Positions 6,488 to 51,448 of a stretch of DNA of 53,496 bases are shown here, one piece after another. The stretch lies in the NCBI RefSeq assembly GCF_000338295.1, contig NZ_ANMO01000130.1:1-53496 (forward strand). Reading direction: 5' to 3'. The notes beneath the pieces are model-generated. The model saw nothing but the letters and a program-made list of their open reading frames with translations, did no database searches and was not told the DNA's origin. Origin of the DNA: Rhodopirellula europaea 6C (GTDB lineage: Bacteria; Planctomycetota; Planctomycetia; Pirellulales; Pirellulaceae). The translations under genes and the position numbers were made by a program. Position 1 is the first letter of the stretch, and every line of letters starts with the position of its first letter.

Positions 6488-6557
6488 TCCATCCACCGGA
6501 ATGCTCACGCATCTCGTTGGAGAATGGGGCCTCAATGACGGTTTCTGATTTTCTGAA

Positions 6558-8291: not shown

Positions 8292-8343
8292 GAGATGGCA
8301 GGTGTTGGAGGGACCGATGGGCGGGGACGGACATGTCCGCTTA

Positions 8344-10582: not shown

Positions 10583-10672
10583 TCAGGCCCGACGACCGGT
10601 TGCATGCGACCGTCGCAACGGCTGAACTGGAGATTCAGGATTCTGTCCCTTCGTGTTTCTGGTTTATCCATC

Positions 10673-12739: not shown

Positions 12740-12762
12740 GCCGTTTCGGCCAAAAGATTTTC

Positions 12763-12789
12763 GACTGGTGGACAGAAGATCCACCAGTC
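12763..12789. terminator. Bidirectional terminator-like hairpin between convergent genes
   Basis: GACTGGTGGA (12763-12772) pairs perfectly with TCCACCAGTC (12780-12789) around a 7-base loop. It lies between the stop of the plus-strand S46 peptidase (12739) and the stop of the minus-strand lipoprotein (12810). Read on the minus strand it is followed by GAAAATCTTTT, which suits termination of the lipoprotein transcript. Confidence 0.6.
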
Positions 12790-12809
12790 ACTCAATGGTC
12801 GGTTCTCAA

Positions 12810-13076
12810 TCAGTCCGTTTTGGCTTCGATCAAGTCACCGGTTTGCTCAGCGACTTCGCCGGCTGCTTCGCGAATCTCCTCATTCTGATCTTCGAGCTCT
12901 TCCAATTCGTCGGACGAGATCGCACCGTCAACCTGAGCTTCGTTGAGCTCTTCTCGGCCTTCTTGCACTTCTTCGTTGTAGTTGTCGACCGACATATCGT
13001 ACTGGGCTTCGTCGCATCCGATTGCGGTCAAGCAAGTAGCGAAAGCGGCGGTCAATGCGAATGATTTCCAAGGCAT
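12810..13076 (-). CDS. Small acidic lipoprotein
   Basis: An 88-residue protein with a short signal and lipobox LTAIGC (Cys21 lipidated). The mature part is strongly acidic and probably helical, with Glu/Asp-rich heptads (NEEVQEGREELNEAQVDG, ELEELEDQNEEIREAAGEV). GAGAGG stands about 6 bases before the ATG as ribosome-binding site. No family is recognised; the likely location is anchored to a membrane as a short helical spacer or binding protein. It is monocistronic, as far as can be seen. Confidence 0.75.
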   Translation of the reverse strand: MPWKSFALTAAFATCLTAIGCDEAQYDMSVDNYNEEVQEGREELNEAQVDGAISSDELEELEDQNEEIREAAGEVAEQTGDLIEAKTD

Positions 13077-13248
13077 GATGAACCTCTCTGAGTGGGAGCG
13101 TGAGAATTGAATGACGCGCTCGATGAATCAAACCATCGACATTGACGCGTCAGACTCTTCCACGGTCGCACATTTCATGCCAGAAATTTGACGCCTCAAA
13201 CAGGCACCTGCAGGCGTTTCGTTGTTTCCGCTTTGAAAACCAAGCGTC

Positions 13249-14598
13249 TCAGCGAACGATGACCAGGACTTCGGTGATGAAATCGCTGCCAGTGCTGGCG
13301 GCTTCGGGTGTACCCAGAGCAAAATCAATTCGATTGGTGAATGATTCGGCTTCGACGGGCATGAAGTCGCGGTTGCTCAGTGCCATGCCGAGTCGTTGCA
13401 AAGAACGCTTGTCTTTGGCATTCAAGTCATAAGCAACGGCACTCGAAGGAGCCACGTCTTCATCTTGTTGCCACGCGATGCCGGAGACTGCATTGCCCAT
13501 CGCCATCGACATACCGACGGATTCAATCGAGTCTTCGTCAGCGAGCAGTTCGAGGAACAAGCGATCCAATTGTTTCGCTGGACCTCGTAGCAACAGGATT
13601 TGGTAACGAGTATTTTCGTCGAGGGTGACGGATTCACGCGTCGCTTCGATCAAACGTTCACTGACGAGTTGTTTGCTCGATGCCGCTAAACCAGCCGTCG
13701 TCATCGCTTTACGAACTGGATCGCTATCCAATGCAAAGTGGTTACGGGCACCAGGATCACGGACCTCTGGTTTCAGCTGAACGTCGTAGATCAACACCGC
13801 ACCGGAGAGCGACTGAACTTTGCTGTTATTTCCAGCAGCTACGGTCGCCGACATGTCGACGGGAGCAGCGTTCAGCTTGGGCGTTGTTTCGGTATTCGTT
13901 GCCGAAGCAATGGAGTTTGGCTCGGGACGGTTCGGTCCGTTGTTGGTGGATGCCTCCAGGTCTGCGACCGAATTCGTGGTCGCTGATGTGTCTTCAGCGA
14001 GCATATTGCCAACGGGCAAATTGTCGGCAGATTGGTCCGTCGAACTATCATTCGCCGCGATGGTATCCACGGCGGGAGCACTCCGCGAATCCAAGTCATT
14101 GACTGGATCGACTTCAACATTGGCCGGATCGGCTTGCGCGACCACGGTGGAAGGATCACCAATTGGAGTGTTCGGATCGGTATCGCTCAAACGGTTCTGC
14201 AGCGAGGCAACCAACAATCCTGCTGCGGCCAAGCCGGCGATCGCAGCCACCCAAGTTCTTCGGCCATTGCGACTGGATTGAGGAATCACCGATTCGACGG
14301 GAACCGAAACGGGAAGTTTTCGCAGCGGGTGATCGGACGACAAATCATCGTCGATGGCTCGTTGCTGCGCCGCAGCGACAACGCGGGACGCGAAATCGGA
14401 TGGCAAGCTCGATGAGGTGCTTGTGCTTTCGTGCAACGACCGCAACATTTGACGATCGAATTCCGCATCGGTGAGTCGCTGGGCTAAGTCAGCGTCCATG
14501 CGCAACTGCTCGGCGAGCCATTGCGATTGATCATCGCTCAAACGACCATCCAAATGGTCGCTGATCAGCTGATCGATCTGTTCGGGTTTTAAAGACAT
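13249..14598 (-). CDS. Anti-sigma-factor-like membrane protein
   Basis: A 449-residue protein. Residues 1-60 (EQIDQLISDHLDGRLSDDQSQWLAEQLRMDADL, without break) resemble the planctomycete anti-sigma/FecR-type N-terminal domain. The same pattern, [21 protein letters not shown], opens the PSD1 protein at 26032, which is coupled to a sigma gene. A single TM helix (WVAAIAGLAAAGLLVASL, about residues 120-140) follows. It leads to a long Asn/Thr/Asp-rich linker and a C-terminal domain (about 260-449) of unknown fold. I chose the ATG at 14598 because the upstream extension to 14706 lacks the family start. No sigma-factor gene is adjacent, so the partner, if there is one, is elsewhere. The function as an anti-sigma factor is inferred. 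Confidence 0.7.
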   Translation of the reverse strand: MSLKPEQIDQLISDHLDGRLSDDQSQWLAEQLRMDADLAQRLTDAEFDRQMLRSLHESTSTSSSLPSDFASRVVAAAQQRAIDDDLSSDHPLRKLPVSVPVESVIPQSSRNGRRTWVAAIAGLAAAGLLVASLQNRLSDTDPNTPIGDPSTVVAQADPANVEVDPVNDLDSRSAPAVDTIAANDSSTDQSADNLPVGNMLAEDTSATTNSVADLEASTNNGPNRPEPNSIASATNTETTPKLNAAPVDMSATVAAGNNSKVQSLSGAVLIYDVQLKPEVRDPGARNHFALDSDPVRKAMTTAGLAASSKQLVSERLIEATRESVTLDENTRYQILLLRGPAKQLDRLFLELLADEDSIESVGMSMAMGNAVSGIAWQQDEDVAPSSAVAYDLNAKDKRSLQRLGMALSNRDFMPVEAESFTNRIDFALGTPEAASTGSDFITEVLVIVR

Positions 14599-14836
14599 GA
14601 TGCTGTTCTTTTGCAGCGAAAGCGAGGTTTGAAACGTATCGAACCAACGCGACGCGTCCATGCGTAGGGGTACAGTGTGAACAAGCCGGCCGCCAGAGCG
14701 GTGCATCGGGTTGTCAAGGTGTCAGATGGCGGATGAACTCACAAAGTTCCCAAATTAGCTTGAAAACGTTCCGTCTGGGGTACCCACCATCGATCGCGAG
14801 ACCATTTTAGGTGCCAATCGCAAGGCTTATCAGCGA

Positions 14837-15658
14837 ATGACGGCCGCCGGATCTCCGCTGTGCCAGATCGTTTCGGACGAGGAATTAGCCAATCCTTTGC
14901 AGACGGTCGACGCTGCAGGTTGGCTGGGCGGGGACATTTCTGGGAAAAAAGTTTTGTGTCTCGCCGCGGGTGGGGGTCGGCAGAGCTGCTTGTACGCGGC
15001 TGCTGGAGCCCGTGTCACGGTGGTGGATCTCTCACCTGCCATGCTGGAACAGGACCGCATTGCGGCTCGCCAGCGGGGTCACCAGGTCGAACTGATCGAG
15101 GGTTCGATGGATGATTTGTCGATGTTGCCCGCCGGGGGTTTTGACATCGTGATCCATCCCGTCAGCACCTGTTATGTGCCCTCGGTGATGGTCGTTTACG
15201 CCCAAGTCGCTCGGGTGATTCGTGGCGGTGGTATCTATATCAGTCAGCACAAATCGCCGGTGAGCCTGCAAACGTCGACCCAGCCACGGGCTGCTGCGAA
15301 CGGTTCGCCTCGATACACGGTGGAACATGCGTACTACCGCAACGGTTCATCGTCCAAGTCTGGTCCGAACACTCCCGTGCCTCCGCCCGCCGCGAATCCG
15401 GTGGCCGCTCGATTGAGAGAACCCGGTGCGGTGGAGTTCTTGCATCGGTGGGAAGAATTGATCGGCGGGATGTGCCGCTCCGGATTTGTGATCGAGGAGC
15501 TGGCCGAACCAATGCATGCGAAACCTGACGCCGAACCAGGCAGCTTTGCCGAGCGAGCTCGCTTCATCCCGCCTTATGTCCGGATCAAAGCCCGTCGACG
15601 AAACGACCAAACGGCAACCGCCGCGACGACTCAGCGACTTTGGATTCCCGAAAACTGA
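14837..15658 (+). CDS. Class I SAM-dependent methyltransferase, start uncertain
   Basis: A 273-residue protein from the first ATG. The Rossmann-type methyltransferase fold shows in KKVLCLAAGGGRQSCLYAAAGARVTVVDLSPAML (motif I and the acidic end of strand 2), VELIEGSMDDLSMLPAGGFDIVIHPVSTCYV (motifs II-III) and ARVIRGGGIYISQHK. The substrate is unknown. The coding signal seems to begin earlier. In the same frame the codons before this ATG spell ANRKAYQR, matching the NRKAW-type opening of this methyltransferase family, yet no ATG, GTG or TTG occurs back to the stop at 14756. The real start may therefore be a rare codon (ATC at 14789 or ATT at 14804), or the sequence may hold an error. Confidence 0.8.
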   Translation: MTAAGSPLCQIVSDEELANPLQTVDAAGWLGGDISGKKVLCLAAGGGRQSCLYAAAGARVTVVDLSPAMLEQDRIAARQRGHQVELIEGSMDDLSMLPAGGFDIVIHPVSTCYVPSVMVVYAQVARVIRGGGIYISQHKSPVSLQTSTQPRAAANGSPRYTVEHAYYRNGSSSKSGPNTPVPPPAANPVAARLREPGAVEFLHRWEELIGGMCRSGFVIEELAEPMHAKPDAEPGSFAERARFIPPYVRIKARRRNDQTATAATTQRLWIPEN

Positions 15659-15776
15659 TCTAGCCGAGTCGCCACGGCAATTGATAGTTCCAAAGCTTCC
15701 CATTTCTTTGAGTTTGGAAACCATTCAGTTGCACGCTTTGGCAAACCGCATCGAGCCGTTCTGTTCGCAGGCGAAA

Positions 15777-16178
15777 ATGTTGGCGATGATCACGCTGCTG
15801 ATTCTCGTCTGCTCGGGCTGTGTGCGTCGCCGAATGACGGTGCGGACCAGCCCTCCGGGCGCAACGGTCTCGATCGACAACCAATTGATTGGAACCTCTC
15901 CAGCATCAACTGATTTCATTTACTATGGCACGCGTGAGGTTCGTGTAGAACGCGAGGGCTATCGCACAGAAGTCGTGCTACGGAGAATGAAGCCGCCGTG
16001 GTATCAATTGCCGGTTTTGGACTTTGTGAGCGAAACGCTTTGGCCAGGTGAAATTCGCGACGAGCGGATCATCGATATCGAATTGGTGCCTCAAGTGATC
16101 GAACCCTCCGAGGATGTCCTGAATCGTGCCGAAGCCCTCCGCAATCAATCGCGAAGTGGCATCATCCCTGCAGGCTGA
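15777..16178 (+). CDS. PEGA-domain lipoprotein
   Basis: A 133-residue protein from the ATG at 15777. A short hydrophobic stretch, MLAMITLLILVCSGC, looks like a lipoprotein signal, although Cys at -3 is unusual. The domain that follows (MTVRTSPPGATVSIDN, IGTSPASTDFIYYG, REVRVEREGYRTEVV) is a PEGA repeat. PEGA domains are small beta-sandwiches on surface proteins that carry a PPGA-type turn. The rest (WYQLPVLDFVSETLWPGEI) is also usual for planctomycete versions. The frame is open to 15516, overlapping the methyltransferase, but the internal start gives a sensible signal. It is closely followed by the large membrane protein. Confidence 0.78.
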   Translation: MLAMITLLILVCSGCVRRRMTVRTSPPGATVSIDNQLIGTSPASTDFIYYGTREVRVEREGYRTEVVLRRMKPPWYQLPVLDFVSETLWPGEIRDERIIDIELVPQVIEPSEDVLNRAEALRNQSRSGIIPAG

Positions 16179-16197
16179 TTCGACCGATCCTTCGTGG

Positions 16198-18588
16198 ATG
16201 AAGTGGGGCGGGCCTTTCATCGGTCCAATTTGCATCGTGGTTCTGATGGCCACGGTTTGGACGGGCCGCGACCGTCTCGCTTTTCGCGACGTCAGTCATT
16301 TCTACACGCCGCTGTATCAATACGTCGGCGAGCGATGTGCTGAGCGACCGCTGACGTATTTCTGGTCCGCGATGTGGAACCCACTGGACCAAACGGGAAT
16401 GCCGTTGGCCGGCGAGACAACGACCGCGGTCTACTACCCGGTTCGGCATTTGGTTTACCTGATCGCGTCATTGGTCGATCACTCACCGACCGAATTGGCA
16501 TCGCCCAACGAGTTGCCTGAAGATGCTTCATTGGCATTGGCTTGGTATGTGACGCTGCATTTGGTCTTGGCATCTTTGGCAGCCTACTGGGCCGCCCGGC
16601 GACTTGGATCGCAACCGGCGTTCTCCGCCATCGCCTCGCTGGTGTACCCGTTGTCCGGCAGCGTGTTGTTTCTCACGACCAACCCGCCGTTTCTGGTCGG
16701 CGCCGCATGGTTGCCGTTTGCTCTGCTGCCGTTGGTTCATGCCAAGGAGCATGGTTGGAAGCTTCCGTCGTTTGCCTTGGCCTTGATGGTTTTGGGCGGT
16801 GATCCTCAGACCGCACTTCATGTCGGAATCATTGCCGGACTGTGGTTGATCTTCGACGTGATTCGAAAATTGCGTGACCGCGATGCAGGGCAATCCTTCT
16901 GGTCGCGTTCGCTTCGTATGGTGGGCATCGCGGCGATGGCTGCTGCTTTAGCGGCACCTCAGATTGTCGCTTCGATCAATTGGGCCCGTCACAGCGGTCG
17001 CGTTTGGTCGAAACTGGATGCATCGCAATCGTTCGCTTTTTCGGTCGCTCCGTGGCGATGGTTGGAGTTGGCGATGCCATCCTTGTTTGGTTCGCCATGG
17101 CCGGTGAACCATCGTTGGGATCGTCCGGTGTTTGCTGGCGGAACGGTCAGTCCCATTGATGCGTTATGGACGCCCAGTCTGTACATCGGCATGTCGACGT
17201 TGGTCCTGGTCTCGATCGGCTTGGTCGGAAGATACCGCGGTCACATTCGCGGCACCGGTTTGTGGTGTTGCGTGCTGCTGGCATCCGGATTGGCCGCGAT
17301 GGGTTGGTACGGACCATGGCACGCACCGTATCAGTGGCTGATCGATTGGGTACCGGGTTACGACGCGTTTCGGTATCCGGCGAAGTGGTTGCCTTTTGTC
17401 TCACTCGCTTTGGCGATGTTGGCGGCACAGGGTGGACAACATCTCTTTCGTGGATGGTTTCGCGAATCGTCCGATTTGAATGAGTCGTTGAACGGTCCGC
17501 GAACAAAGCGTCGAGCAGTCCAGGTTTGGTTGTTGATGACATTTGGATTAGCGGTTGCCAGTGTCGCCGTTTGGTTCGCGATGGCATCGATGAGTTCAGC
17601 CCCGGTGGACGTGGTGTGGGGACCGTTCCAAACCGAGGTCGCTTGGTACAGATGGTTGGGCAGTACCGCTCATGTTTGGATTCTCGTCACGATCATTCTC
17701 GCGATGAGCGTCGCGTGGAAACGCCCGGTCGATCAGCAGAAACTGGCTTGGGCATGGGTCGCTTTGATCGCGTGTGACTTGATGGTCGCTCATTGGAATT
17801 TGGTCCCGACCATCAACCGGAAAGCTGAACGTGTCGCCTGGCACGAACTCGATCATTCCCCATCCAACGCACTCGATTCAACTCGTTGGATTCGAACGGC
17901 GGGCGAAGGTGAATATCCCGCGAAGTGGGCGACCACATCAGACCAGCAACGATTGTTGGACATGGAAGTTCATGATCGCCGACGTTGGTATGGTCGTTGG
18001 CACATGGTCGAGGACGAGGCGGTATTCAACAGCGTCGTCTCGATCCGGCCTTGGGCGATCGATCAGTTTTGGGACGCGGCCGGCCAGCAGTCCACACCAA
18101 TCAATTGGCAACAAACGGCGTCATGGTTAGGCGTGGGTGGATCGCGAACTTCGAAAGGGCGGAGTCATCGCTGGCCGACTCGTGGTCTGCGATATCATCG
18201 CCACGATCAAGTTATGACGGAGGCCGAAATTTCTTGGCCGAAGCGAATCGAGATGGCATCGGAGGCTGGAGACCAAGTCGGCGTGATCTCGGTTGGCTCG
18301 TTGGCCATGGCCGAAGGAAGGCCAGAAGACACCTTTGTGTCGCGACGGGTTTACCAGGACGGTGGCTGGCGAGCGGAATTGCGGTCGCAAGATTCCGCGA
18401 TCGAACCAGTGCCACTGACGGTGTTTTCAGCCGATGGTGTGGCGCAAGGCGTGTGGTGTCCGCCCGGAACTTGGACGATTCGTTGGATCTACGAACCCCG
18501 GGGGCACAGGGGTGCGGTGATCGTTTGGATGTCGGGATGGTTGATGTTGCTGGCGGTCTCGATTTGGTCGGTTACTCGAACGAAGTGA
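16198..18588 (+). CDS. Large multi-pass membrane protein, YfhO-like
   Basis: A 796-residue protein from the ATG at 16198. A GTG at 16126 would add 24 residues but overlap the PEGA gene by 53 bp. It has about twelve hydrophobic segments in the first 560 residues, including FIGPICIVVLMATVW, WYVTLHLVLASLAAYWA and SLALAMLAAQGGQHL. The pieces WNPLDQTGMPLAGE and WVPGYDAFRYPAKWLPF resemble the YfhO/GT-C type membrane proteins, some of which decorate cell-wall polymers with sugars. The last 230 residues are a soluble, Trp-rich, outward-facing domain before a final TM helix (VIVWMSGWLMLLAVSIW). The function is not established. It ends 17 bp from the convergent HD-GYP gene. Confidence 0.75.
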   Translation: MKWGGPFIGPICIVVLMATVWTGRDRLAFRDVSHFYTPLYQYVGERCAERPLTYFWSAMWNPLDQTGMPLAGETTTAVYYPVRHLVYLIASLVDHSPTELASPNELPEDASLALAWYVTLHLVLASLAAYWAARRLGSQPAFSAIASLVYPLSGSVLFLTTNPPFLVGAAWLPFALLPLVHAKEHGWKLPSFALALMVLGGDPQTALHVGIIAGLWLIFDVIRKLRDRDAGQSFWSRSLRMVGIAAMAAALAAPQIVASINWARHSGRVWSKLDASQSFAFSVAPWRWLELAMPSLFGSPWPVNHRWDRPVFAGGTVSPIDALWTPSLYIGMSTLVLVSIGLVGRYRGHIRGTGLWCCVLLASGLAAMGWYGPWHAPYQWLIDWVPGYDAFRYPAKWLPFVSLALAMLAAQGGQHLFRGWFRESSDLNESLNGPRTKRRAVQVWLLMTFGLAVASVAVWFAMASMSSAPVDVVWGPFQTEVAWYRWLGSTAHVWILVTIILAMSVAWKRPVDQQKLAWAWVALIACDLMVAHWNLVPTINRKAERVAWHELDHSPSNALDSTRWIRTAGEGEYPAKWATTSDQQRLLDMEVHDRRRWYGRWHMVEDEAVFNSVVSIRPWAIDQFWDAAGQQSTPINWQQTASWLGVGGSRTSKGRSHRWPTRGLRYHRHDQVMTEAEISWPKRIEMASEAGDQVGVISVGSLAMAEGRPEDTFVSRRVYQDGGWRAELRSQDSAIEPVPLTVFSADGVAQGVWCPPGTWTIRWIYEPRGHRGAVIVWMSGWLMLLAVSIWSVTRTK

Positions 18589-18605
18589 ATGACCGAATCC
18601 ACGGT

Positions 18606-19925
18606 TCATTCTTCGTCGAAGAACAATTCGTCAGCCGGATTCCAGCGGATGTTTTTCATCGCGTCGATTGAAAGTCGGCCTTGATTGCGTTGAGGGTCGC
18701 AAGTTGGCTGAACCACTTCATCGGGGTTTTCCTGCATGTCGAAACGTTCGCCATCGGAAAGTTGCAACACGGGGCACGCATATCCTTCGACTGGTCGGCG
18801 GATCACGTCCGCCCATTTGCCGTTTGTCAGTTCGACTCGGCTGCCCAGTGGAAACAACGACTTTGTTCGTAACAAGGCATGAATGACCTGAGGGTCAAAG
18901 CTTCCATAGCGAGCTTGATGCAGGATGAATCCCAACGCATCGTGTGGCACCAACGCTTTTCGAAAACCTGTTCCGAGTGTCAAACGAAGGTACGTATCGC
19001 AGACGTTGAGAATGCGAGCGTAGATGTGAATCCGTTTGCCTTCCAAACCAAACGGGTAACCAGCACCGTTGTACTGTTCGTGGACTTGTTCGATTGCCAA
19101 CAAGACTGAATGAGGGATGTCAGAAACTTCACGAAGACTGTTCGCCGAGACGACCGGATGTTTGCGATACTCCCATGTTTCTTCTTCTGAAAACGCACCT
19201 CGCCCAGGGACGCTGAAGGCGGGATCCATGGAATACAAACCAATGTCATGCAGTAAACCAGCCATGCCGATTTCCAATACGGAGGGTCCATCCAAATCAA
19301 GTTCGGTTCCGATGGCCATGCCCAACACGCCCAGCTTCACGCTGCGGTCGGTTAGTGACATTTCGGTGTTGCAGGCGACAACTTCGCCGACAGTTTGATC
19401 GTGGTCGTCCACCATGGCCGAAGCGAATGCGCCCGATAGGTCAGACAACGCCTCGACGGTTTGCATCTTGCGTTCGGTCAGTGCCAAACGAATTTCTTCG
19501 AACTTGCTACGAGCCATTTTGACATGGCCTTGCAGTGTCCGTCGTCGTGTTAGGTCAATGGGTTCGTGATGACGATTGACCAAAGCGTCTTTCAACGGCA
19601 CTCCCTTGATCCATTTTGTTGGATCGCGTCCAGTGGTATGCGACGCTTCTTTTTCTCGCGTGGTTCTTGGCTTTGCCCTGACCGCACCAGTGTTGCCGCG
19701 GTTGCTCAGTACATCGGCTTCCTCAGCATTGACGGTCAGTTCTTCGATGCCGCGTTCTCGCAGACCATCGATCACTTCATTGGTGATGCGGGTGCCGGTG
19801 CCGAGTAGCAATCGGCCCATTTCGTCATTGATCGGTGTACGACAAATCGCACCGACCTGAAGATCGTCGATGGGAACAAGAACAGTGTTCGCACTGTCGT
19901 TCGCATTAGAAGTAGTTGAAATCAT
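18606..19925 (-). CDS. HD-GYP domain protein with altered motif residues
   Basis: A 439-residue soluble protein. The N-terminal part (residues 14-66, VLVPIDDLQVGAICR to GIEELTV) resembles the small domain that precedes HD-GYP in many bacteria. The HD-GYP domain spans about residues 165-345, with LLHDIG (His216, Asp217), KHPVVS (His246), HEQYNGAGYP (272-281) and ARILNVCDTYLRLT. HD-GYP enzymes hydrolyse cyclic di-GMP. Some typical residues differ. HDIGK is HDIGL, the usual HHE is VHE and the DG before GYP is NG. Activity is therefore uncertain and it may be a sensor or scaffold. The C-terminal 95 residues carry a small beta domain (GSRVELTNGKWADVI). It is divergent from the LhgO gene. Confidence 0.85.
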   Translation of the reverse strand: MISTTSNANDSANTVLVPIDDLQVGAICRTPINDEMGRLLLGTGTRITNEVIDGLRERGIEELTVNAEEADVLSNRGNTGAVRAKPRTTREKEASHTTGRDPTKWIKGVPLKDALVNRHHEPIDLTRRRTLQGHVKMARSKFEEIRLALTERKMQTVEALSDLSGAFASAMVDDHDQTVGEVVACNTEMSLTDRSVKLGVLGMAIGTELDLDGPSVLEIGMAGLLHDIGLYSMDPAFSVPGRGAFSEEETWEYRKHPVVSANSLREVSDIPHSVLLAIEQVHEQYNGAGYPFGLEGKRIHIYARILNVCDTYLRLTLGTGFRKALVPHDALGFILHQARYGSFDPQVIHALLRTKSLFPLGSRVELTNGKWADVIRRPVEGYACPVLQLSDGERFDMQENPDEVVQPTCDPQRNQGRLSIDAMKNIRWNPADELFFDEE

Positions 19926-41626: not shown

Positions 41627-41740
41627 GTCAGAGGCGGACTGGCCGTGAACCCCCGCCGATTTTTCGGTGGTTGAGAGGGATGAGTGTCGTCGTGTTTACT
41701 CTGTAGGCCGGTTTCGCGAACGCGACCGGTAGATTGCTCC

Positions 41741-43300
41741 ATGCAAAATCACCCACAACAAACTCAGTCGCCGCTGGCTCAGGCGCAAGCCGGTCAGTCG
41801 CAGAACGGACAAATGCAATCCCAATCGGGAACGGTTCCGTGTTTGCCCGGCTACGAAACCGGATCTTTCTTTGACGAAGTGGTGGATCAAGACTCGTTTG
41901 CGCGGCCCGATGCGGTCGCGTTGGTGGATCTGATCAATCGTTTGCCACCGGGTGAATTGAATCGTCGACAGTTGGCGATCGAACGGTCGCTGTACCAGAT
42001 GGGCATCACGTTCACGGTTTACAGTGACTCAGCGGGCACCGAGAAAATCATGCCCTTTGACATCGTTCCGCGAATCATCTCACCGGATGTTTGGACGCAT
42101 ATCGACACTGGTTTGAAACAGCGTATTCGGGCGCTGAACCGTTTTTTGTCGGACATCTACAACGAACGAAAGATTATCGAAGACGGCATCATCCCGGCAT
42201 CGATCGTGGATTCGTGCCCGGCATACTTGCCTCAGTGCAAAGGTCTGCGTCCGCCGCATGATGTTTGGTGCCATATCACCGGGACCGACTTGGTTCGCGA
42301 CAACGACGGGAACGTCTTTGTTCTGGAAGACAACCTGCGATGCCCGTCCGGCGTTTCGTACGTGTTGCAGAATCGCTCGGTGATGAAGCGGAACTTCCCG
42401 CAAGCCTTCACGGCATCGATGGTCCGCCCGGTCAGTGATTATCCCGCGCGGCTGTATCAGATGCTTCGCCGGATGGCACCGAGCCATATTGCCGATCCAA
42501 ATGTGGTCGTGCTGACACCGGGTGTCTACAACAGCGCCTACTACGAACACTCCTATCTGGCACACCAGATGGGCGTCGAGTTGGTGGAAGGACGTGACCT
42601 GTTGGTCAAAGACGATCGTGTCTACATGCGAACGACCGATGGACTTCAAGCGGTGGATGTGATCTATCGACGTGTGGATGACACTTTCCTCGACCCAAAA
42701 GTGTTCAATCCGAAATCGGTCTTGGGAGTTCCCGGGTTGATGTCGGCTTATCGTGCCGGCAATGTGGCACTCGCAAATGCACCGGGCACCGGTGTTGCTG
42801 ATGACAAGGTTGTCTACGCCTACGTGCCGGAGATGATTCAGTATTACTTGGGTGAAGAACCAATTCTTTCGAACGTGCCGACATACCTGTGCGATCGCGA
42901 AGAAGACCGCGCCTATGTGCTGGATCACTTGGACGAATTGGTTGTCAAAGCGGCTGGTGAATCGGGTGGCTATGGCATCTTGATCGGGCCGCATGCCACG
43001 CCAGAAGAACGTCAAGAATTCGCGGCGAAGATCATCGACAATCCACGCAATTACATCGCCCAACCGACGCTGCAATTGTCTCGGGTTCCGACAATGGTGG
43101 ACGATCACCTTGAAGGACGTCATGTCGATTTGCGTCCGTACATTCTTTGCGATGGCCCAGACGATGTGTGGGTTTTGCCCGGCGGTCTGACACGAGTGGC
43201 ACTCAAAAAGGGTTGCCTCGTCGTAAATTCATCCCAAGGTGGCGGTAGCAAAGACACTTGGGTGGTCGCACAGGCTGGTGAAACCATCGCGCGGGTCTAG
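41741..43300 (+). CDS. Circularly permuted ATP-grasp protein (DUF404/DUF407), module 1
   Basis: A 519-residue protein from the ATG at 41741 with a Gln-rich start of about 35 residues. Family blocks are SLYQMGITFTVYSDSAGTEKIMPFDIVPRIIS (one run), FLSDIYNERKIIEDG, ITGTDLVRDNDGNVFVLEDNLRCPSGVSY (Glu196, Asp197 and Asn198 as likely metal ligands), VELVEGRDLLVKDDRVYMRT and DELVVKAAGESGGYGILIGPHAT (Lys and Gly-rich ATP contacts). These are predicted amide-bond-forming ligases that activate a carboxylate with ATP; the product of this branch is unknown. The metal and nucleotide residues look intact, so this copy is probably active. It is the first gene of the 41.7-51.4 kb cluster, 111 bp before the alpha-E gene. 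Confidence 0.88.
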   Translation: MQNHPQQTQSPLAQAQAGQSQNGQMQSQSGTVPCLPGYETGSFFDEVVDQDSFARPDAVALVDLINRLPPGELNRRQLAIERSLYQMGITFTVYSDSAGTEKIMPFDIVPRIISPDVWTHIDTGLKQRIRALNRFLSDIYNERKIIEDGIIPASIVDSCPAYLPQCKGLRPPHDVWCHITGTDLVRDNDGNVFVLEDNLRCPSGVSYVLQNRSVMKRNFPQAFTASMVRPVSDYPARLYQMLRRMAPSHIADPNVVVLTPGVYNSAYYEHSYLAHQMGVELVEGRDLLVKDDRVYMRTTDGLQAVDVIYRRVDDTFLDPKVFNPKSVLGVPGLMSAYRAGNVALANAPGTGVADDKVVYAYVPEMIQYYLGEEPILSNVPTYLCDREEDRAYVLDHLDELVVKAAGESGGYGILIGPHATPEERQEFAAKIIDNPRNYIAQPTLQLSRVPTMVDDHLEGRHVDLRPYILCDGPDDVWVLPGGLTRVALKKGCLVVNSSQGGGSKDTWVVAQAGETIARV

Positions 43301-43411
43301 AACCGTTCGCAGGGTTTGTTTGGCCGCGATGGCTACTCTGCATTGATCCGCTTTCGCCATTTTCAATTCAATCGCGCAGTCGCTTTTCTTTTCATCGCTG
43401 ACACCACTGAT

Positions 43412-44362
43412 ATGCTTTCACGCGTTGCTGAATCCGTTTACTGGATGAGTCGCCAAGTGGAGCGTGCTGAGAATATCGCACGCTTCTTGGAGGTCACTCT
43501 GAACTTGATCTTGGATCAACCTGAGAACTTGGTTGATCCTTGGAGTCCGTTGGTGCAGGTCACCGCTGATGAGGAGTGGTTCGAAGAGAAATATGGCAAG
43601 CCTGACAGTCGCAACGTCGTTCAGTTCCTCGCGTTCGACGATGAGTATCCCAACAGCATGGTTTCCTGCTTGCGAGCGGCTCGCGAAAATGCTCGGGGCG
43701 TTCGTGAGACCTTGTCTTCGGAAGCGTTTGAACAACTCAACCAGTTTTATCACTTCGTTGGTGACGCTTCGCCCGCGGCGGCGATGGATCCGACCAGCCA
43801 GTTTTTTGATGACGTTCGAAAGCAAACGCTGCTTTGGAGCGGTGTGTTTGCCAGCACCATGGCCCAGGACAGTGGATGGCACTTCGCGAACTTAGGCCGC
43901 ATGCTTGAGCGAGCCGACAAGACGTCTCGAATTTTGGATGTGAAGTACTTCAATCTGCTGCCGAACTTGGCAGACGTTGGCACGGCGGTCGACGATTTGC
44001 AGTGGTCAGCATTGTTGCTGGCGATCAGCGGGTTCGAAGCCTATCGTCGCGATCACCATCAAATTGAAATTGAAAAGGTCGTTGATTTCTTTCTCTTCAA
44101 TCGCAGCTTTCCAAGATCGATTCACCACTGCATCGCATCAGCGAACTGGTCGCTCGGAGAAATCGAGCAGGCTTCCTCCAGCAATATGAATCGTACGGCG
44201 GGCCCCATTCTCGACGAACTGCAACATCGTTTAGCTCACACTCAAGTCGAAGAAGCGCTAGCGGGCGGCATGCACCAATTTGTTGATTCGGTTCAATCCG
44301 AAATCAATCGAATTGGTGAAGCTCTTGGACAAGACTATTTTCAAATTTCGGTGAATTCATGA
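43412..44362 (+). CDS. Alpha-E domain protein (DUF403), module 1
   Basis: A 316-residue, all-helical protein from the ATG at 43412. The opening MLSRVAESVYWMSRQVERAENIARFLEVTLNLIL (one run) is the signature of the alpha-E family, and GVFASTMAQDSGWHFANLGRMLERADKTSRILDVKYF and SANWSLGEIEQ are later conserved helices. Acidic and Arg side chains in repeated ERAxx patterns suggest a substrate-binding bundle. Alpha-E proteins occur nearly always beside or fused to circularly permuted ATP-grasp proteins and transglutaminases. Their biochemical role is unknown. The stop overlaps the start of the next gene by 4 bp. Confidence 0.88.
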   Translation: MLSRVAESVYWMSRQVERAENIARFLEVTLNLILDQPENLVDPWSPLVQVTADEEWFEEKYGKPDSRNVVQFLAFDDEYPNSMVSCLRAARENARGVRETLSSEAFEQLNQFYHFVGDASPAAAMDPTSQFFDDVRKQTLLWSGVFASTMAQDSGWHFANLGRMLERADKTSRILDVKYFNLLPNLADVGTAVDDLQWSALLLAISGFEAYRRDHHQIEIEKVVDFFLFNRSFPRSIHHCIASANWSLGEIEQASSSNMNRTAGPILDELQHRLAHTQVEEALAGGMHQFVDSVQSEINRIGEALGQDYFQISVNS

Positions 44363-47300
44363 CGATCCGCGTCGCGCTACATCACAAGACGTCGTACAAA
44401 TACGAACGACCGATCATGGTCGGTGCTCAACAAGTCCGATTGCGTCCGGCCTATCATGGTCGAACACCAATTGTGTCGTACAACTTGGCGATCTCCCCCG
44501 AAGACCATTTTTGCAACTGGCAACAGGATCCCTTTGCCAATCCGGTTGCGCGGTTGGTTTTTGAAAAGCCAACAGACCACTTCACCGTTTGCGTGGATTT
44601 GGTGGCGGATATGACCGTCATCAACCCGTTTGAGTTTTTCGTTGACGATTCGGCTCAGGAATGGCCATTCGAATACGACGATCAAGTCAAACGGCAACTG
44701 GCCAGCTATTTGGCGCCGGTGGAGACGACGCCCAAGTTCGAAAAATGGATCGAAACGCTGCCGAAGAAGTCGGAGCGAATCATCGATTTCTTGGTCGACG
44801 TCAATCGAGCGGCCCAATCGAAGATCGATTACAAAATCCGTTTGGAACCAGGTGTCCAAACACCCGAAGAAACGCTGACTCTGTGCAGCGGTTCGTGCCG
44901 TGACTCAGCTTGGTTGTTGGTCAACGCGTTTCGTCACATGGGGATGGCATCCCGTTTTGTGTCCGGGTATTTGATTCAGTTGACCGCTGATCAAGAATCC
45001 TTGGACGGACCCAATGGACCGGCGGAGGACTTCTGCGATTTGCACGCCTGGACCGAGGTCTATCTGCCAGGTGCCGGATGGGTTGGGTTGGATCCGACCA
45101 GTGGCTTGATGGCCGGCGAAGGTCACATCCCGTTGGCTTGCACGCCGACATTCACTGACGCGGCACCGATCATCGGTGGGCATGAACCGTGCGAAGTGGA
45201 ATTTGAACACGAGATGACGGTCACTCGGGTCCATGAAGATCCACGCGTGACCAAACCGTACGCGGAATCCACTTGGCAAGAAATCTTGCAGGCCGGCCGA
45301 ACGATTGATGAACAGTTGGAATCAGCTGATGTTCGGTTGACGATGGGTGGCGAACCGACCTTCGTTTCGATCGACAACATGGATGATCCGCAATGGAACA
45401 CCGATGCGGTTGGTGAAGAGAAACGAGTGCTCAGCAATGTTTTGCTGACTCGTCTGCGGGATCGTTGGGCACCGGGAAGTTTGCTGCACTACGGTCAAGG
45501 CAAATGGTATCCCGGCGAGTCGCTTCCTCGATGGGCGTTGACTTGTTTGTGGCGGCGCGATGGGCAACCGATTTGGCAGGACGATCAATGGATCGCCGAT
45601 GAGGGGAAAGACTACGGTCACACTCACAGCGACGCGGAACGTTTTGTGAAAACGCTGGCGCGCGAGCTGAATGTCAGTGCCCGGATGACGTTCCCGGTTC
45701 ACGAAGACGTCTTTCACTACTTGTGGCGAGAGAACCGTTTGCCGATCGATGTGGACCCGGAGGATCCGAAGCTGGAGGATCCCAATGAACGTGCGATGAT
45801 GATGCGAACGTTCAACGCTGGGCTTGGGTCGCCCGTTGGATATGTGCTTCCGGTTCGCCGAGCATGGTGGCAGGCTCGCCCGGGTTGGATCAGCGGCCGA
45901 TGGCCTGTTCGAAGCGAACGTGTGTATTTGATTCCCGGTGATTCGCCGATCGGTTTGCGATTGCCTCTGGATCGTTTGCCCGTTGCTTCCGCATCCGAGG
46001 CCCCGTTCTATACCACGCCGATGGATCCGACGGCTCCGCACGGACCGTTGCCACCGCCCGAGATGCCTCGGGGGAATGAACAAGACCCGCGAGGCAATCG
46101 ACGCGTTGATTCGCCCGACGAGTCACGAGAACGGATTCACCCTCAAGTCTTGGATGAAGAAGACGACGACAATCTGCCGACCAGCGAAGACGTGGTGCAA
46201 ACGGCGCTTTGCGTGGAGTGTCGGTACGGACGATTGTATGTCTTCATGCCGCCGACTCAGCGGATCGAGGACTACTTGGATTTGGTCACCGCCGTTGAGC
46301 AAACCTGTGCTTCGACCAAATTGCCGGTCATCATCGAAGGCTATCTGCCGCCCGCTGACGATCGAATCGAGTTGTTCAAGGTTACTCCTGACCCAGGTGT
46401 GATCGAAGTCAACACGCAGCCGACCGCATCGTGGGACGATTTGGTTGAATTGACTGAATCGCTGTATCACGAAGCTCGCAAATCACGGCTGGGAACCGAG
46501 AAGTTTGACTTGGACGGTTACCACACCGGGACCGGTGGAGGAAACCACATCGTATTGGGTGGACGATCGACGAACGAAAGCCCGTTCTTGCGACGGCCCG
46601 ATTTGTTGGCCAGCTTCATTCGGTTTTGGAACAATCACCCGTCGCTGTCTTACATGTTCAGCAGTCGGTTCATTGGCCCGACCAGTCAAGCACCTCGAAT
46701 GGATGAGGCGCGACAAGACGCGGCGTATGAAATGGACATCGCGCTGAGTCAGTTGCCTCCGACCGAAACGGATGTTCCGCCGTGGTTGGTGGACCGATTG
46801 TTCCGTGACCTGATGGTCGATTTGACGGGCAACACTCACCGTGCCGAAATCTGCGTCGACAAGCTGTACTCGCCTGACAGTTCAACCGGACGTTTGGGCT
46901 TGGTCGAGCTGCGTGGCTTTGAAATGCCACCGCACGAACAAATGAGTCTGGCTCAGTTGTTGTTGATTCGCTCGTGCGTGGCCGCGTTTTGGCAGCAACC
47001 TTACGATCGTCCGATTCAACATTGGGGCACACGTCTTCACGATCAGTTTTTGCTGCCCCACTTTGCTTGGCAGGACCTCACGCAATTGGTCGGCGAACTT
47101 AACGCCAAGGGGTCACCGATATCCGCGGATTGGTTCGCGGTGCATCATGAGTTTCGGTTCCCATTGATTGGCGAAATGGTCCTCGATGGAATGCGAGTGG
47201 AACTTCGCAGTGCCATTGAACCGTGGTACGTGATGGGTGAAGAACCGGGGTCGAGCGGAACGACTCGATTCGTTGATTCATCACTGGAACGATTGCAGGT

Positions 47301-47706
47301 GTTGGTGGAAGGTTTGGAACCGGATCGCCACGCGTTGATCGTGGCGGGACGTGAGGTTCCGTTGCATGCCACCGGTGTTGCCGGTCAGTACGTGGCGGGA
47401 ATCCGCTATCGAGCCTGGCAACCGCCTCGCTGCTTGCATCCAACCATCGGTGTTCACACGCCGTTGCAATTCGATTTGGTGAATCGTGCGGCTCGCCGTT
47501 CGATCGGGGGCTGCACTTACCACACCGTGCACCCGGGTGGGCTCAGTCACGAACGGTTCCCCGTCAATCCGAAGGAAGCAGAGTCGCGACGTGCATCGCG
47601 ATTCCGTGAATTCACGCTGTCGGGAGGCGAAATCGTGATGCCTGGACTGCCATCGCGAACCGGGTACGAACCCTTCCCTGTCACGATGGATTTGCGGCGC
47701 AGCTAG
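44359..47706 (+). CDS. Transglutaminase-like protease fused to DUF2126, module 1
   Basis: An 1115-residue protein. Residues 1-100 are the transglutaminase N-terminal beta domain (ALHHKTSYKYERP, QQVRLRPAY). The papain-like transglutaminase core has Cys180 (LCSGSCRDSAWLLV), His229 (DLHAWTEVYLPGAGWVG) and Asp245 (GLDPTSG), a complete triad. DUF2126 follows from about 330 (VRLTMGGEPTFVSIDNMDDPQWNTDAVG, one run) to the end, with YGQGKWYPGESLPRW, a region of PEV-type linkers near 560-600, and YHTGTGGGNHIVLGG near 725. DUF2126 is otherwise found attached to these transglutaminases and is of unknown function; its pattern of His, Asp and Glu would fit an enzyme. It is a cytoplasmic protein as no signal is present. 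Confidence 0.9.
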   Translation: MTIRVALHHKTSYKYERPIMVGAQQVRLRPAYHGRTPIVSYNLAISPEDHFCNWQQDPFANPVARLVFEKPTDHFTVCVDLVADMTVINPFEFFVDDSAQEWPFEYDDQVKRQLASYLAPVETTPKFEKWIETLPKKSERIIDFLVDVNRAAQSKIDYKIRLEPGVQTPEETLTLCSGSCRDSAWLLVNAFRHMGMASRFVSGYLIQLTADQESLDGPNGPAEDFCDLHAWTEVYLPGAGWVGLDPTSGLMAGEGHIPLACTPTFTDAAPIIGGHEPCEVEFEHEMTVTRVHEDPRVTKPYAESTWQEILQAGRTIDEQLESADVRLTMGGEPTFVSIDNMDDPQWNTDAVGEEKRVLSNVLLTRLRDRWAPGSLLHYGQGKWYPGESLPRWALTCLWRRDGQPIWQDDQWIADEGKDYGHTHSDAERFVKTLARELNVSARMTFPVHEDVFHYLWRENRLPIDVDPEDPKLEDPNERAMMMRTFNAGLGSPVGYVLPVRRAWWQARPGWISGRWPVRSERVYLIPGDSPIGLRLPLDRLPVASASEAPFYTTPMDPTAPHGPLPPPEMPRGNEQDPRGNRRVDSPDESRERIHPQVLDEEDDDNLPTSEDVVQTALCVECRYGRLYVFMPPTQRIEDYLDLVTAVEQTCASTKLPVIIEGYLPPADDRIELFKVTPDPGVIEVNTQPTASWDDLVELTESLYHEARKSRLGTEKFDLDGYHTGTGGGNHIVLGGRSTNESPFLRRPDLLASFIRFWNNHPSLSYMFSSRFIGPTSQAPRMDEARQDAAYEMDIALSQLPPTETDVPPWLVDRLFRDLMVDLTGNTHRAEICVDKLYSPDSSTGRLGLVELRGFEMPPHEQMSLAQLLLIRSCVAAFWQQPYDRPIQHWGTRLHDQFLLPHFAWQDLTQLVGELNAKGSPISADWFAVHHEFRFPLIGEMVLDGMRVELRSAIEPWYVMGEEPGSSGTTRFVDSSLERLQVLVEGLEPDRHALIVAGREVPLHATGVAGQYVAGIRYRAWQPPRCLHPTIGVHTPLQFDLVNRAARRSIGGCTYHTVHPGGLSHERFPVNPKEAESRRASRFREFTLSGGEIVMPGLPSRTGYEPFPVTMDLRRS

Positions 47707-47864
47707 AAATCCACGATTGCCTCTCCCACGTAGGGGGTGGCCGAGGCGGCTGAGATGCATTTGCTCGCCCGGTCATTCGTCGAATCCTTGGGCTCGGTTA
47801 CAATGGCGCTTCAATGCTACACCGCGACGAAGAAGTTTGACCCAGATGGTATTTCCTCGGGTCG

Positions 47865-50522
47865 ATGCTGTTGCCAACTCAGATCGAATCAAAGGTGAAC
47901 GTGCCGACTCCCACCGCGACAGCTCATTCCAACGATTTGCCATCGGGATCGCCGCCTGGGCTCTCATTGGCAGACTATGCCTCGATGGCGGAACGCTTTG
48001 ACGAATGCCGTTTACCCGATGGTGCATTGCGTCCATGTTGGAAGAGCATTGCCAATGAGGTCACGAGTCTCGGCAAGTCAGGGCTGAACGACCGTGAATC
48101 GCAGATTGAACAATTGATTCGTGAGAACGGATCGACGTTTCAGATCGACACCGGTGAAGGCACGCAGACTCGCCCTTGGCAATTGGCGACCGTGCCGATT
48201 GCCATCGCGGAGCAAGACTGGAATCGGTTGGCCACCGGGTTGGCTCAACGGACCCGTGTTCTGGAAGCCATCCTGGCTGATTTGCTTGGACCCCAACGGC
48301 TGATTCGTGAACGCGTTTTGCCGCCTGAGTTGTTGTGGGACAACCCTCGATTCCTTCGCGTTTATCACAACCTTCCGGTGTCCGCTGGTCATCGGTTGCA
48401 TCTGGTCGGTTTCGATGTCGCGCGTGCCAGCGATGGTGCATGGTGGGTCACCGGTGATCGCACCCGAGCGCCGAGCGGATTGGGTTATCTGCTTGAGAAC
48501 CGGATTGTTCATGGACGCATCTTTCCGCATCTCAGTCGCACCGCCAACGTGCGTCGGCTGGCATCATTCTTCGGATCAATGCGGCGCCATTTTCGAACGC
48601 TTGCTCCTCGTCAAAAAGACAATCCGCGAGTTGCTTTGCTGACTCCCGGCCACGGCAGCTATCGCGATTTCGAAGACGCTTACCTCGCTCGGTATTTGGG
48701 ATACACCTTGGTCCAAGGCCGCGACTTGGCGGTTCGGGGCGAACGGCTGCATTTGAAAACATTAGGCGGATTGCTTCCGATCGAAGTGCTTTGGCGGCAT
48801 GTCTCCGATCGAAAGTGCGATCCATTGGAATTGGATCCTCATTCAACCGAAGGCGTCACCGGATTGCTGCGGTGCAAACGTGGCGGTGAATTGGCGGTTG
48901 TGAATTCGATCGGAACCGCGATCGCCGAAATGCCTGCATTGATCCCATTCTTGCCGGCGGCGGCAAAGTTGTTGTTGGGTGAGACGTTGCAATTGCCCAG
49001 CGTGGCAACGTATTGGTGCGGAGCCGAAAAGGAACGCCAGTATGTTTTGGAACATCTCGATGAATTGGTTCTGCGAGATGCGTTCGCGGTCAGCGACACG
49101 CGTCCGGTGATGCCGGTTCGATGCACCGCCGAAGAGAAGGACGCTTTGGTGCGTCGCATCAAAGCCCAACCCAATCGATTTGTTGGGCAACATCGGTTGT
49201 CTCACAGCGTCACGCCGGTGTGGCATGGTGAGCGATTCGAACCTTGGCACGTTTCACTTCGGACGTTTGTGCTGCAAACCAAAAACAACATCGAAGTGTT
49301 GCCGGGTGCACTTGCGCGTGTCAGTCCGAAAGAAGATCTGCTAAGCAACTCGCCAACTCAGGGGCAATTGACGCAGGATTGTTGGATCGTCAGCGACAAA
49401 CCAGTCGATCACGAAACCACGTTGCTTTCCAATGACGATCACACGATTGTTCTGCGACGCAGCGGAGCTGAATTGCCCAGCCGCGTTGCCGAGCATCTTT
49501 TTTGGTTGGGACGCTACGTCGAGCGTTGTGAGTCCATCGCCAGATTGCTGCGAACGACGTTGGCTCGGCTGGTGGGCGAAGATGAACTCAACGATTTGCC
49601 CGAGATGACGAGGTTGGTGGCTGCTTTGGCGGCCGTTGGACAACTCGAACCTGACTACGCGATTGAGGGCCTCGACGGGGCCATGCCTCAATTGGATAGC
49701 GTGTTGCCGTCCAGCGTCTTTGACACCGCCAATCCGCGAGCATTGCAAAACTCGGTTGCCAGCGCACTGCACAATGCGACGGCCGTTCGCGACCGAATCT
49801 CGCTGGATGCCTATCGAATTTTCCAAAGCATTCACGCGGATATCTCCGGCTCGCGAAGACCGACGACGGTCAACGTTTCGCGGGCGATGGAGCGGCTCAA
49901 CCGTTTGATCACCCACTTGATGGCGTTTAGCGGATTGACCGCGGAGAGTCTGACAAGAACACACGGTTGGCGTTTCGTTTTGCTGGGACGCCGCTTGGAA
50001 CGCGCTGATCAAACCGCTGAGTTGTTGCTTGCAACGATGGTTCGGCCAGTCGCCGATGAAGTTGGATTGTGCGAGAGCATTTTGGATGCGACCGACAGCT
50101 TGATGACCTATCGGTCGCGTTACCTTTCATTGGTTCGTCCCGCACCCGCGATTGACCTAATGGTCACGGATGAAACCAACCCGAGATCGCTGCGTTTTCA
50201 GCTCAACGACATTCAACAATTGCTCAGCGATCTACCGACGGAACCAGGGCGTGTCGCGTTGGGTGCGGACGAACGATTGGCTCGTGAACTTCAGCACCCA
50301 TTGCTGATTGCGGACGTCGGGACTCTCACCGAAGTCAACGCATCGGGGAATCGGGTGGAACTGCAGCGGTTGCTGGAATTGGTTCAAGCGAAAATTCCTC
50401 AGCTGGCAAACGCAATCGCTGGTCGATACCTCATTCATACCGCACCCGAGCAGACTTTGACTGGCGATCGCGAACAATCGCTGGATGAATCCTTGATGCC
50501 TCCCGAAGCAACGCAAAGGTGA
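47865..50522 (+). CDS. Fused ATP-grasp and alpha-E protein, module 2
   Basis: An 885-residue protein. Residues 1 to about 500 are a second circularly permuted ATP-grasp domain (LRVYHNLPVSAGHRLHLVGFDV, VALLTPGHGSYRDFEDAYLARYLGYTLVQGRDLAV, one run). Residues about 530-860 are an alpha-E domain (SRVAEHLFWLGRYVERCESIARLLRTTLARL, HGWRFVLLGRRLERADQTAEL). Compared with the copy at 41741, the LEDNLR metal motif is TGDRTR, and KAAGESGGYG after DELV is RDAFAVSDTR. Such changes are usual in this fused subfamily as I know it, but they suggest altered or lost ATP chemistry. It starts 158 bp after module 1, with TACAAT at 47799 as a possible -10 element. Its stop overlaps a GTG of the next gene. Confidence 0.88.
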   Translation: MLLPTQIESKVNVPTPTATAHSNDLPSGSPPGLSLADYASMAERFDECRLPDGALRPCWKSIANEVTSLGKSGLNDRESQIEQLIRENGSTFQIDTGEGTQTRPWQLATVPIAIAEQDWNRLATGLAQRTRVLEAILADLLGPQRLIRERVLPPELLWDNPRFLRVYHNLPVSAGHRLHLVGFDVARASDGAWWVTGDRTRAPSGLGYLLENRIVHGRIFPHLSRTANVRRLASFFGSMRRHFRTLAPRQKDNPRVALLTPGHGSYRDFEDAYLARYLGYTLVQGRDLAVRGERLHLKTLGGLLPIEVLWRHVSDRKCDPLELDPHSTEGVTGLLRCKRGGELAVVNSIGTAIAEMPALIPFLPAAAKLLLGETLQLPSVATYWCGAEKERQYVLEHLDELVLRDAFAVSDTRPVMPVRCTAEEKDALVRRIKAQPNRFVGQHRLSHSVTPVWHGERFEPWHVSLRTFVLQTKNNIEVLPGALARVSPKEDLLSNSPTQGQLTQDCWIVSDKPVDHETTLLSNDDHTIVLRRSGAELPSRVAEHLFWLGRYVERCESIARLLRTTLARLVGEDELNDLPEMTRLVAALAAVGQLEPDYAIEGLDGAMPQLDSVLPSSVFDTANPRALQNSVASALHNATAVRDRISLDAYRIFQSIHADISGSRRPTTVNVSRAMERLNRLITHLMAFSGLTAESLTRTHGWRFVLLGRRLERADQTAELLLATMVRPVADEVGLCESILDATDSLMTYRSRYLSLVRPAPAIDLMVTDETNPRSLRFQLNDIQQLLSDLPTEPGRVALGADERLARELQHPLLIADVGTLTEVNASGNRVELQRLLELVQAKIPQLANAIAGRYLIHTAPEQTLTGDREQSLDESLMPPEATQR

Positions 50523-50527
50523 ATTCA

Positions 50528-51448
50528 ATGCCTCGGTCGGTCACTTACGACATCGTTCATGAGACGAAGTACACATACAGCGAACCCGTTGCGGTTTGTT
50601 TGAACCAGCTTCGCATGCGCCCGCAGACACGGTCACCGTCGGTGGTTTGCAACCAGTGCACCGTCACCATTGAACCGGTGCCAGCCAAAGTGGATACGCA
50701 CCCGGACTACTTCGGTAACGTTGTCGACTCATTTGCGATTGAGTCACATCATGAATCGTTGGTTGTCAAAGTCGCCAGTCAGGTGCAGGTCAATGCGATC
50801 AATCCCTTTGAGTCGCCAAACATTCCGACGGTAGCAGAAGTGGTCCATGCAATCCGAACCGGACAGACCGAAGCTGATCTCTTCGCCAAGGAATATGTGT
50901 TCGCATCTCCTCGCATTCCCTTGGCGGGCCACTTCGCCGAATACGCCAAAACGATCGTGAACGAGGGCTCATCGATCTTGGACGCGGTGCTTCAGCTGAC
51001 CAAACACATCCACGATGACTTCCGATACGATTCGACCGCCACGGACGTCAGCACGACAACCCAGTCCGCGTTTGAACTCAAAGCAGGGGTGTGTCAGGAT
51101 TTCTCACACGTTCAAATCGCCTGCTTGCGCAGCCTTGGGTTGCCCGCCCGATATGTCAGCGGCTATCTGCGAACGTTGCCTCCGCCCGGAAAACCTCGTT
51201 TGATAGGCAACGACGAATCCCACGCTTGGATCAGCGTCTACGCGGGAGAAGCTCTGGGATGGATCGACTTTGACCCAACCAATGCTTGTCAGATCGGAGT
51301 CGATCATATCCCCGTCTGTGTTGGTCGGGACTATGACGACATCAGCCCCATGCGGGGCATCGTGCTGGGCGGCGGCCACACGACCCTTGCCGTCAAGGTG
51401 GACGTCGCACCGGTCGAACTGCCAACAGAGGTGGGACCACCTGCCTGA
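50528..51448 (+). CDS. Transglutaminase-like protein, module 2
   Basis: A 306-residue protein from the ATG at 50528; a GTG at 50519 overlaps the previous stop by 4 bp and is also possible. The N-terminal beta domain (SVTYDIVHETKYTYSEPV, LNQLRMRPQTRSPS) matches that of the module 1 protein. The catalytic triad is present: Cys189 in AGVCQDFSHVQIAC, His232 in DESHAWISVYAG and Asp249 in WIDFDPTN. It ends with a short RDYDDISPMRGIVLGGG stretch usual for this family. These enzymes may act as peptidases or amidases that undo amide bonds, or as transferases; neither is demonstrated. It is the last gene of the cluster, and a gene-poor repeat region follows. Confidence 0.88.
   Translation: MPRSVTYDIVHETKYTYSEPVAVCLNQLRMRPQTRSPSVVCNQCTVTIEPVPAKVDTHPDYFGNVVDSFAIESHHESLVVKVASQVQVNAINPFESPNIPTVAEVVHAIRTGQTEADLFAKEYVFASPRIPLAGHFAEYAKTIVNEGSSILDAVLQLTKHIHDDFRYDSTATDVSTTTQSAFELKAGVCQDFSHVQIACLRSLGLPARYVSGYLRTLPPPGKPRLIGNDESHAWISVYAGEALGWIDFDPTNACQIGVDHIPVCVGRDYDDISPMRGIVLGGGHTTLAVKVDVAPVELPTEVGPPA

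What the first reader, a model, noticed from the sequence alone, without database searches (positions are those of the whole stretch)
41741..51448. Tandem double ATP-grasp / alpha-E / transglutaminase cluster of unknown product
Five genes encode two versions of one module: separate ATP-grasp, alpha-E and transglutaminase-DUF2126, then fused ATP-grasp/alpha-E plus a second transglutaminase. All three families are known from comparative genomics (ATP-grasp amidoligase surveys) to travel together, and the suspected role is making and trimming an amide-linked peptide or tag. No product has been established that I know of. The stop/start overlaps (44359-44362, 50519-50522) and common direction point to co-expression. 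No precursor peptide and no Anbu-type proteasome gene, often linked elsewhere, is seen in the window.
Basis: partly seen in the sequence, partly recalled or inferred. Interest (0 to 1): 0.75.

Follow-up and report, generated by a model that had tools for sequence, protein, structure and literature searches.

The report
Five-gene amide-ligase operon, one ATP-grasp dead
A planctomycete bacterium carries a five-gene set for making and cutting amide bonds that many distant bacteria share; its product is unknown, and one of its two ATP-grasp proteins has lost the residues needed to use ATP, so it probably serves as a partner protein rather than as a catalyst.

The parts
41684..43300 (+). A1: separate circularly permuted ATP-grasp ligase (538 aa from GTG 41684; 519 aa from ATG 41741), catalytic residues intact
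   Evidence: Pfam PF14403/PF04174; solved relative 3n6x, 545.6 bits, E 1.2e-162; E215, N217 and K375 present in 78 of 78 distinct A1 sequences, D482 and GGxG in 77 of 78
43412..44362 (+). E1: separate alpha-E protein (ORF opens at TTG 43316; domain match starts at 43412)
   Evidence: PF04168 E 1.6e-95; match begins 43412
44359..47706 (+). TGL: transglutaminase-like domain (C180/H229/D245) fused to DUF2126, a glutamine-synthetase-type fold
47707..47864 (.). 158-base gap between TGL and FUS; no conserved ORF found
   Evidence: Over the gap plus 200 bases, 41-81% identity to the window in 12 other regions of the genus
47865..50522 (+). FUS: pseudo-ATP-grasp (residues about 42-510) fused to alpha-E (537-856)
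50519..51448 (+). TGS: small transglutaminase-like protein, C192/H235/D252
   Evidence: PF08379, PF01841; triad in 109 of 109 aligned small transglutaminase-like proteins of the loci, not all of them next to FUS

Best explanation
The five genes encode one cytoplasmic amide-bond system, built by an ancient duplication of an ATP-grasp/alpha-E pair. A1, with E1 as its partner, is an ATP-grasp ligase that activates a carboxylate as acyl-phosphate and joins it to an amine. The DUF2126 half of TGL is a second, GS-type ATP-dependent ligase. The two transglutaminase-like Cys-His-Asp domains (in TGL and TGS) cut or transfer the amide bonds. FUS is a catalytically dead ATP-grasp fused to alpha-E, kept as a structural or regulatory partner of A1-E1 or of TGL. 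Shown here: gene set, conservation, co-occurrence, residue loss, predicted folds, triads. Inferred: complex formation (from the fusion of the paralogous pair), the reactions and their direction, the cytoplasmic place, and a role under nitrogen limitation. Unknown: the substrate.
For: Exact five-gene order in 21 of 48 testable named loci, six of the 21 from Rhodopirellula and near kin, the rest from several phyla, and on an Enterobacter plasmid. Co-occurrence in 98 genomes (own plus 97 relatives): E1 with fused 57, E1 only 7, fused only 1, neither 33; DUF2126 with fused 56, DUF2126 only 1, fused only 2, neither 39 (genomes are not independent). Residue loss specific to FUS; the lost positions fall, by motif and weak profile alignment, on GspS Glu330, Asn332 and Lys498, which by spacing match the TryS residues that hold Mg and ATP phosphates (Glu344, Asn346, Lys513; PMC3581523, passages). 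FUS folds as a GspS/3n6x-type ATP-grasp. DUF2126 has a GS/GmaS/YbdK fold. A relative of A1 from Yersinia bercovieri releases phosphate from ATP (PMC6376114, passages). Nitrogen: the Burkholderia cenocepacia genes for A1, E1, TG and large TG are NtrC/sigma54 targets (PMC5491218, passages); sigma54-like sites (score 13 or more) at 14 of 69 A1 heads and 7 of 33 TGL heads versus 20 of 707 control genes.
Against: No substrate, product or complex is known; pull-downs with the Y. bercovieri Anbu protein found no specific partner among the operon proteins (PMC6376114). The profile alignments to GspS are weak (hhalign probability under 1%), so the residue register rests on motif plus fold. Several pocket residues are kept in FUS (Asp216 119, Arg231 124, Arg484 124 of 125). 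The sigma54 threshold was chosen after a first look at the same loci; FUS heads show 1 of 32; and the window's own upstream region shows no such site (10.5, reached by 45% of shuffles; no excess in the window). Two genomes with E1 and fused lack DUF2126 (G016, G021).
Confidence: 0.55

Rival explanations
1. Two parallel, equally active ATP-grasp/alpha-E/transglutaminase modules with different substrates.
For: Both ATP-grasps and both alpha-E domains are full length and conserved; each half of the cluster has a transglutaminase gene.
Against: FUS lost E215, N217, K375, D482 and the GGxG loop in practically all 125 distinct sequences across phyla; the parts are nearly always present together.
Confidence: 0.1
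2. FUS is not dead but changed: the conserved new residues (Arg at 217, mostly Pro at 375) make a different site, for instance a ligand sensor or another enzyme.
For: Asp216 119, Arg231 124 and Arg484 124 of 125 are kept, and Arg stands at 217 in 119 of 125, so the pocket seems under selection.
Against: I know of no ATP-grasp ligase that works without the Glu/Asn Mg pair (recalled); no direct evidence of another reaction.
Confidence: 0.25
3. The cluster makes a secreted peptide natural product (graspetide-like) from a short precursor.
For: ATP-grasp plus protease-like genes are a usual set for such products (recalled).
Against: Among 1213 flanking ORFs of at least 70 aa from 135 loci the commonest family occurs in 11 loci and looks like protein kinases; the gaps of the genus hold no conserved ORF.
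Confidence: 0.05
4. A nitrogen-limitation cycle that makes and breaks peptide-polyamine or glutamyl-amine conjugates, in the manner of glutathionylspermidine synthetase/amidase, with ligases and Cys-amidases on separate chains.
For: After 3n6x the nearest solved folds to FUS include YgiC and YjfC (annotated peptide-spermidine ligases), GspS, TryS and glutathione synthetases; ligase plus Cys-amidase logic is the same; NtrC and sigma54 links.
Against: Fold kinship does not fix the substrate; no metabolite data.
Confidence: 0.15

Closest known systems
ATP-grasp / alpha-E / transglutaminase amidoligase neighbourhoods (Iyer et al. 2009, PMC3268129; not held, recalled and as cited in PMC5666114 and PMC6376114, passages)
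   Same: Same families and same general prediction of peptide or tag synthesis
   Different: Here five genes with a fused second ATP-grasp that has lost its catalytic residues, plus DUF2126; I could not check whether that survey noted the loss or the five-gene set
Anbu operon (ATP-grasp, alpha-E, transglutaminase, Anbu)
   Same: A1 and E1 are the same kind of pair, and a small transglutaminase is present
   Different: No Anbu found in this genome; DUF2126 and FUS present instead. In six relatives (G063, G066, G076, G083, G092, G095) an Anbu-like gene lies within 2 kb of E1
NtrC/sigma54-controlled genes I35_5080-83 of Burkholderia cenocepacia H111 (PMC5491218, passages)
   Same: A1-, E1-, TG- and large-TG-type genes in one cluster; in B. 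multivorans L100 the order is A1-E1-TG-TGL-FUS-TG
   Different: The window's operon has no TG between E1 and TGL and no sigma54 site was found
Glutathionylspermidine synthetase/amidase, trypanothione synthetase, YgiC/YjfC
   Different: About 10% identity; circularly permuted family; amidase role perhaps taken by transglutaminase-like proteins; substrate unknown

Membership tests
Circularly permuted ATP-grasp ligase (A1) | Pfam PF14403/PF04174 above cut-off | tested here: met
   570.9 and 497.3 bits, cut-offs 32 and 23.1
Circularly permuted ATP-grasp ligase (A1) | Glu-x-Asn Mg pair, Lys phosphate ligand, Gly-rich loop | tested here: met
   77-78 of 78 distinct sequences
Circularly permuted ATP-grasp ligase (A1) | ATP-dependent amide bond formation | not testable with these tools
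   In the passages read, only phosphate release by the Y. bercovieri relative is reported (PMC6376114)
Active ATP-grasp ligase (FUS) | ATP-grasp fold | tested here: met
Active ATP-grasp ligase (FUS) | Glu-x-Asn Mg pair, Lys phosphate ligand, Gly-rich loop | tested here: not met
   Glu 0, Asn 1, Lys 0, loop 0 of 125 distinct sequences
Alpha-E | PF04168 with conserved E-R motifs | tested here: met
   E1 and FUS both over cut-off; E49 and R50 in 84 of 84 E1 rows; the matching FUS positions keep E in 122 and R in 131 of 132 rows
Transglutaminase-like Cys-His-Asp superfamily | Catalytic triad | tested here: met
   TGS C192/H235/D252 109 of 109 rows; TGL C180/H229/D245 at least 97% of 95 rows
GS-type carboxylate-amine ligase (DUF2126) | Glutamine-synthetase/GCS2 fold | tested here: met
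GS-type carboxylate-amine ligase (DUF2126) | Ligase activity | not testable with these tools
   -
Anbu operon | Anbu gene present | tested here: not met
   No proteasome-family match over cut-off in the genome
Graspetide-type RiPP cluster | Adjacent precursor peptide gene | tested here: inconclusive
   None found beside the operon; a distant precursor is not excluded

The most novel reading that the evidence does not exclude
A phylum-spanning, nitrogen-limitation-responsive conjugation cycle in which an active ATP-grasp/alpha-E ligase is paired with its own dead, fused paralogue as an allosteric or substrate-holding subunit, working with a GS-type ligase and two transglutaminase-like amidases: a ligase-pseudoligase pair made from ATP-grasp enzymes. 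One search for inactive or pseudo-ATP-grasps listed a single paper, on a eukaryotic tubulin-ligase-like protein.
Probability: 0.2. Interest if true: 0.8.

Novelty: new member of a known kind. Interest (0 to 1): 0.5.

Why it matters
A widely spread bacterial system has stayed without a known product since it was predicted. Knowing that one of its two ATP-grasps is dead by sequence, that a GS-type ligase is the likely second catalyst, and that its control seems tied to nitrogen limitation in some groups tells the experimenter which protein to assay, which to mutate, and in which medium to look.

Tried and rejected

Considered and rejected: mobile origin in this genome (not searched for in detail; no sign in the neighbours read). 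The P-values ignore common descent and should be read as ordering, not as probabilities. Rows dropped: sequences cut by contig ends or of odd length were left out by length limits; operon heads with under 200 bases upstream, and heads whose last 140 bases were the same, were dropped. The 85 A1 and 132 fused rows hold some genomes twice (named and unnamed copies); 78 and 125 are distinct over the core.

Literature limits: Iyer et al. 2009 is not held. Nine searches listed no paper that I could see to report the loss of catalytic residues in the fused protein; of the papers only listings and passages were seen.

Full report
What is there. Window 41684-51448 (+) holds five genes: A1 (separate circularly permuted ATP-grasp), E1 (alpha-E), TGL (transglutaminase-like domain plus DUF2126), FUS (second ATP-grasp fused to alpha-E) and TGS (small transglutaminase-like protein), all above Pfam cut-offs. 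Overlaps are as reported. The genome (7.19 Mb, 99.93% complete) has just these two alpha-E domains and no proteasome-family or Anbu gene over cut-off.

It is a conserved set. Among 98 genomes (own plus 97 relatives), 64 have an E1-type and 58 a fused-type alpha-E; 57 have both, 7 only E1, 1 only the fused, 33 neither; DUF2126 and fused occur together in 56, DUF2126 alone in 1 (a fragment, G056), fused alone in 2, neither in 39 (from; the two types were told apart by bit score). Hand count: in 37 of the 57 the two lie side by side, in 20 they do not, though some of the 20 are contig breaks (G054 clearly). In single-contig genomes G018 and G064 they lie about 1.6 and 1.0 Mb apart and are both still there. 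The seven E1-only genomes include G063, G066 and G092, where an Anbu-like gene lies within 2 kb of E1, so A1-E1 seems to be used with Anbu or with the DUF2126/FUS/TGS set, or with both (G076, G083, G095).

It is not a planctomycete peculiarity. With enough contig on both sides, 21 of 48 show the exact five-gene order, six of them from Rhodopirellula and near kin; a DUF2126 gene lies just upstream of FUS in 44 of 58 and a transglutaminase just downstream in 66 of 73 (strict rules, so L126, L149 and L180 are scored as lacking TGL upstream although one search shows it). In the phylum, 64 of 392 evenly drawn genomes have DUF2126, so most planctomycetes sampled lack it. The same five genes lie on a 90.7-kb plasmid of Enterobacter roggenkampii, about 2 kb from arsC; Burkholderia multivorans has A1-E1-TG-TGL-FUS-TG, and Granulicella, Azospirillum and Caballeronia have TGL-FUS-TG in the stretch fetched.

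Control. In Burkholderia cenocepacia the genes for A1, E1, TG and large TG are NtrC and sigma54 targets (PMC5491218, passages), and in Pseudomonas putida a proteasome-type and a circularly permuted ATP-grasp gene (PP_2685, PP_2688) are higher with nitrate than with ammonium (PMC8050072, passage). Upstream of operon heads, sigma54-like sites of score 13 or more occur at 14 of 69 A1 heads, 7 of 33 TGL heads and 1 of 32 FUS heads against 20 of 707 other genes in the same loci (at 12.5: 17, 8, 3 and 41; at 13.5: 8, 3, 1 and 6; at 14: 5, 0, 0 and 3). The threshold was set after a first look at the same loci. The window's own operon shows none, and no head of its genus reaches 13.

Reading. One system with two ligases of different folds, two transglutaminase-like Cys enzymes and a pseudo-ATP-grasp/alpha-E partner, rather than two copies of a module. 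That E1 and A1 act together is inferred from the fusion of their paralogues. Substrate and direction remain unknown. The families and their association are known (Iyer et al. 2009, recalled; cited in PMC5666114 and PMC6376114), so this is a new member of a known kind; the residue loss in the fused partner and the sigma54 sites are what I add, and I could not check the 2009 survey for the first.

Noticed in passing
L193 (G008:C149) 5487-18761; L194 (G025:C12) 4224-11197; L195 (G288:C52) 1647-11551: Some planctomycetes carry extra TG-DUF2126 genes away from the five-gene operon: two full-length ones in a row in L193 and L194, and DUF2126 genes of about 700 aa without a transglutaminase part in L193 and L195, in L195 beside a divergent A1-E1-TG. 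Unexplained.
   Followed up: partly
L094 3231-12422: The whole five-gene operon is plasmid-borne in an Enterobacter roggenkampii isolate from blood, about 2 kb from arsC and 5 kb from an IS26 transposase.
   Followed up: partly
G001, G002, G003, G005, G008, G009, G010, G012: Weak proteasome-family matches (28.5-36.5 bits, open frames of 253-293 aa, Anbu-like) occur in 8 of the 12 other genomes of the genus, away from the alpha-E genes, but not in the window's genome.
   Followed up: no
window 47707-47864: Near relatives share a short stretch with GGTTACAAT or similar before FUS; it could be a promoter of FUS-TGS in this group.
   Followed up: no
L034 6601-9906: G001 has a second, separate A1-E1-TG trio besides the five-gene operon.
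   Followed up: no
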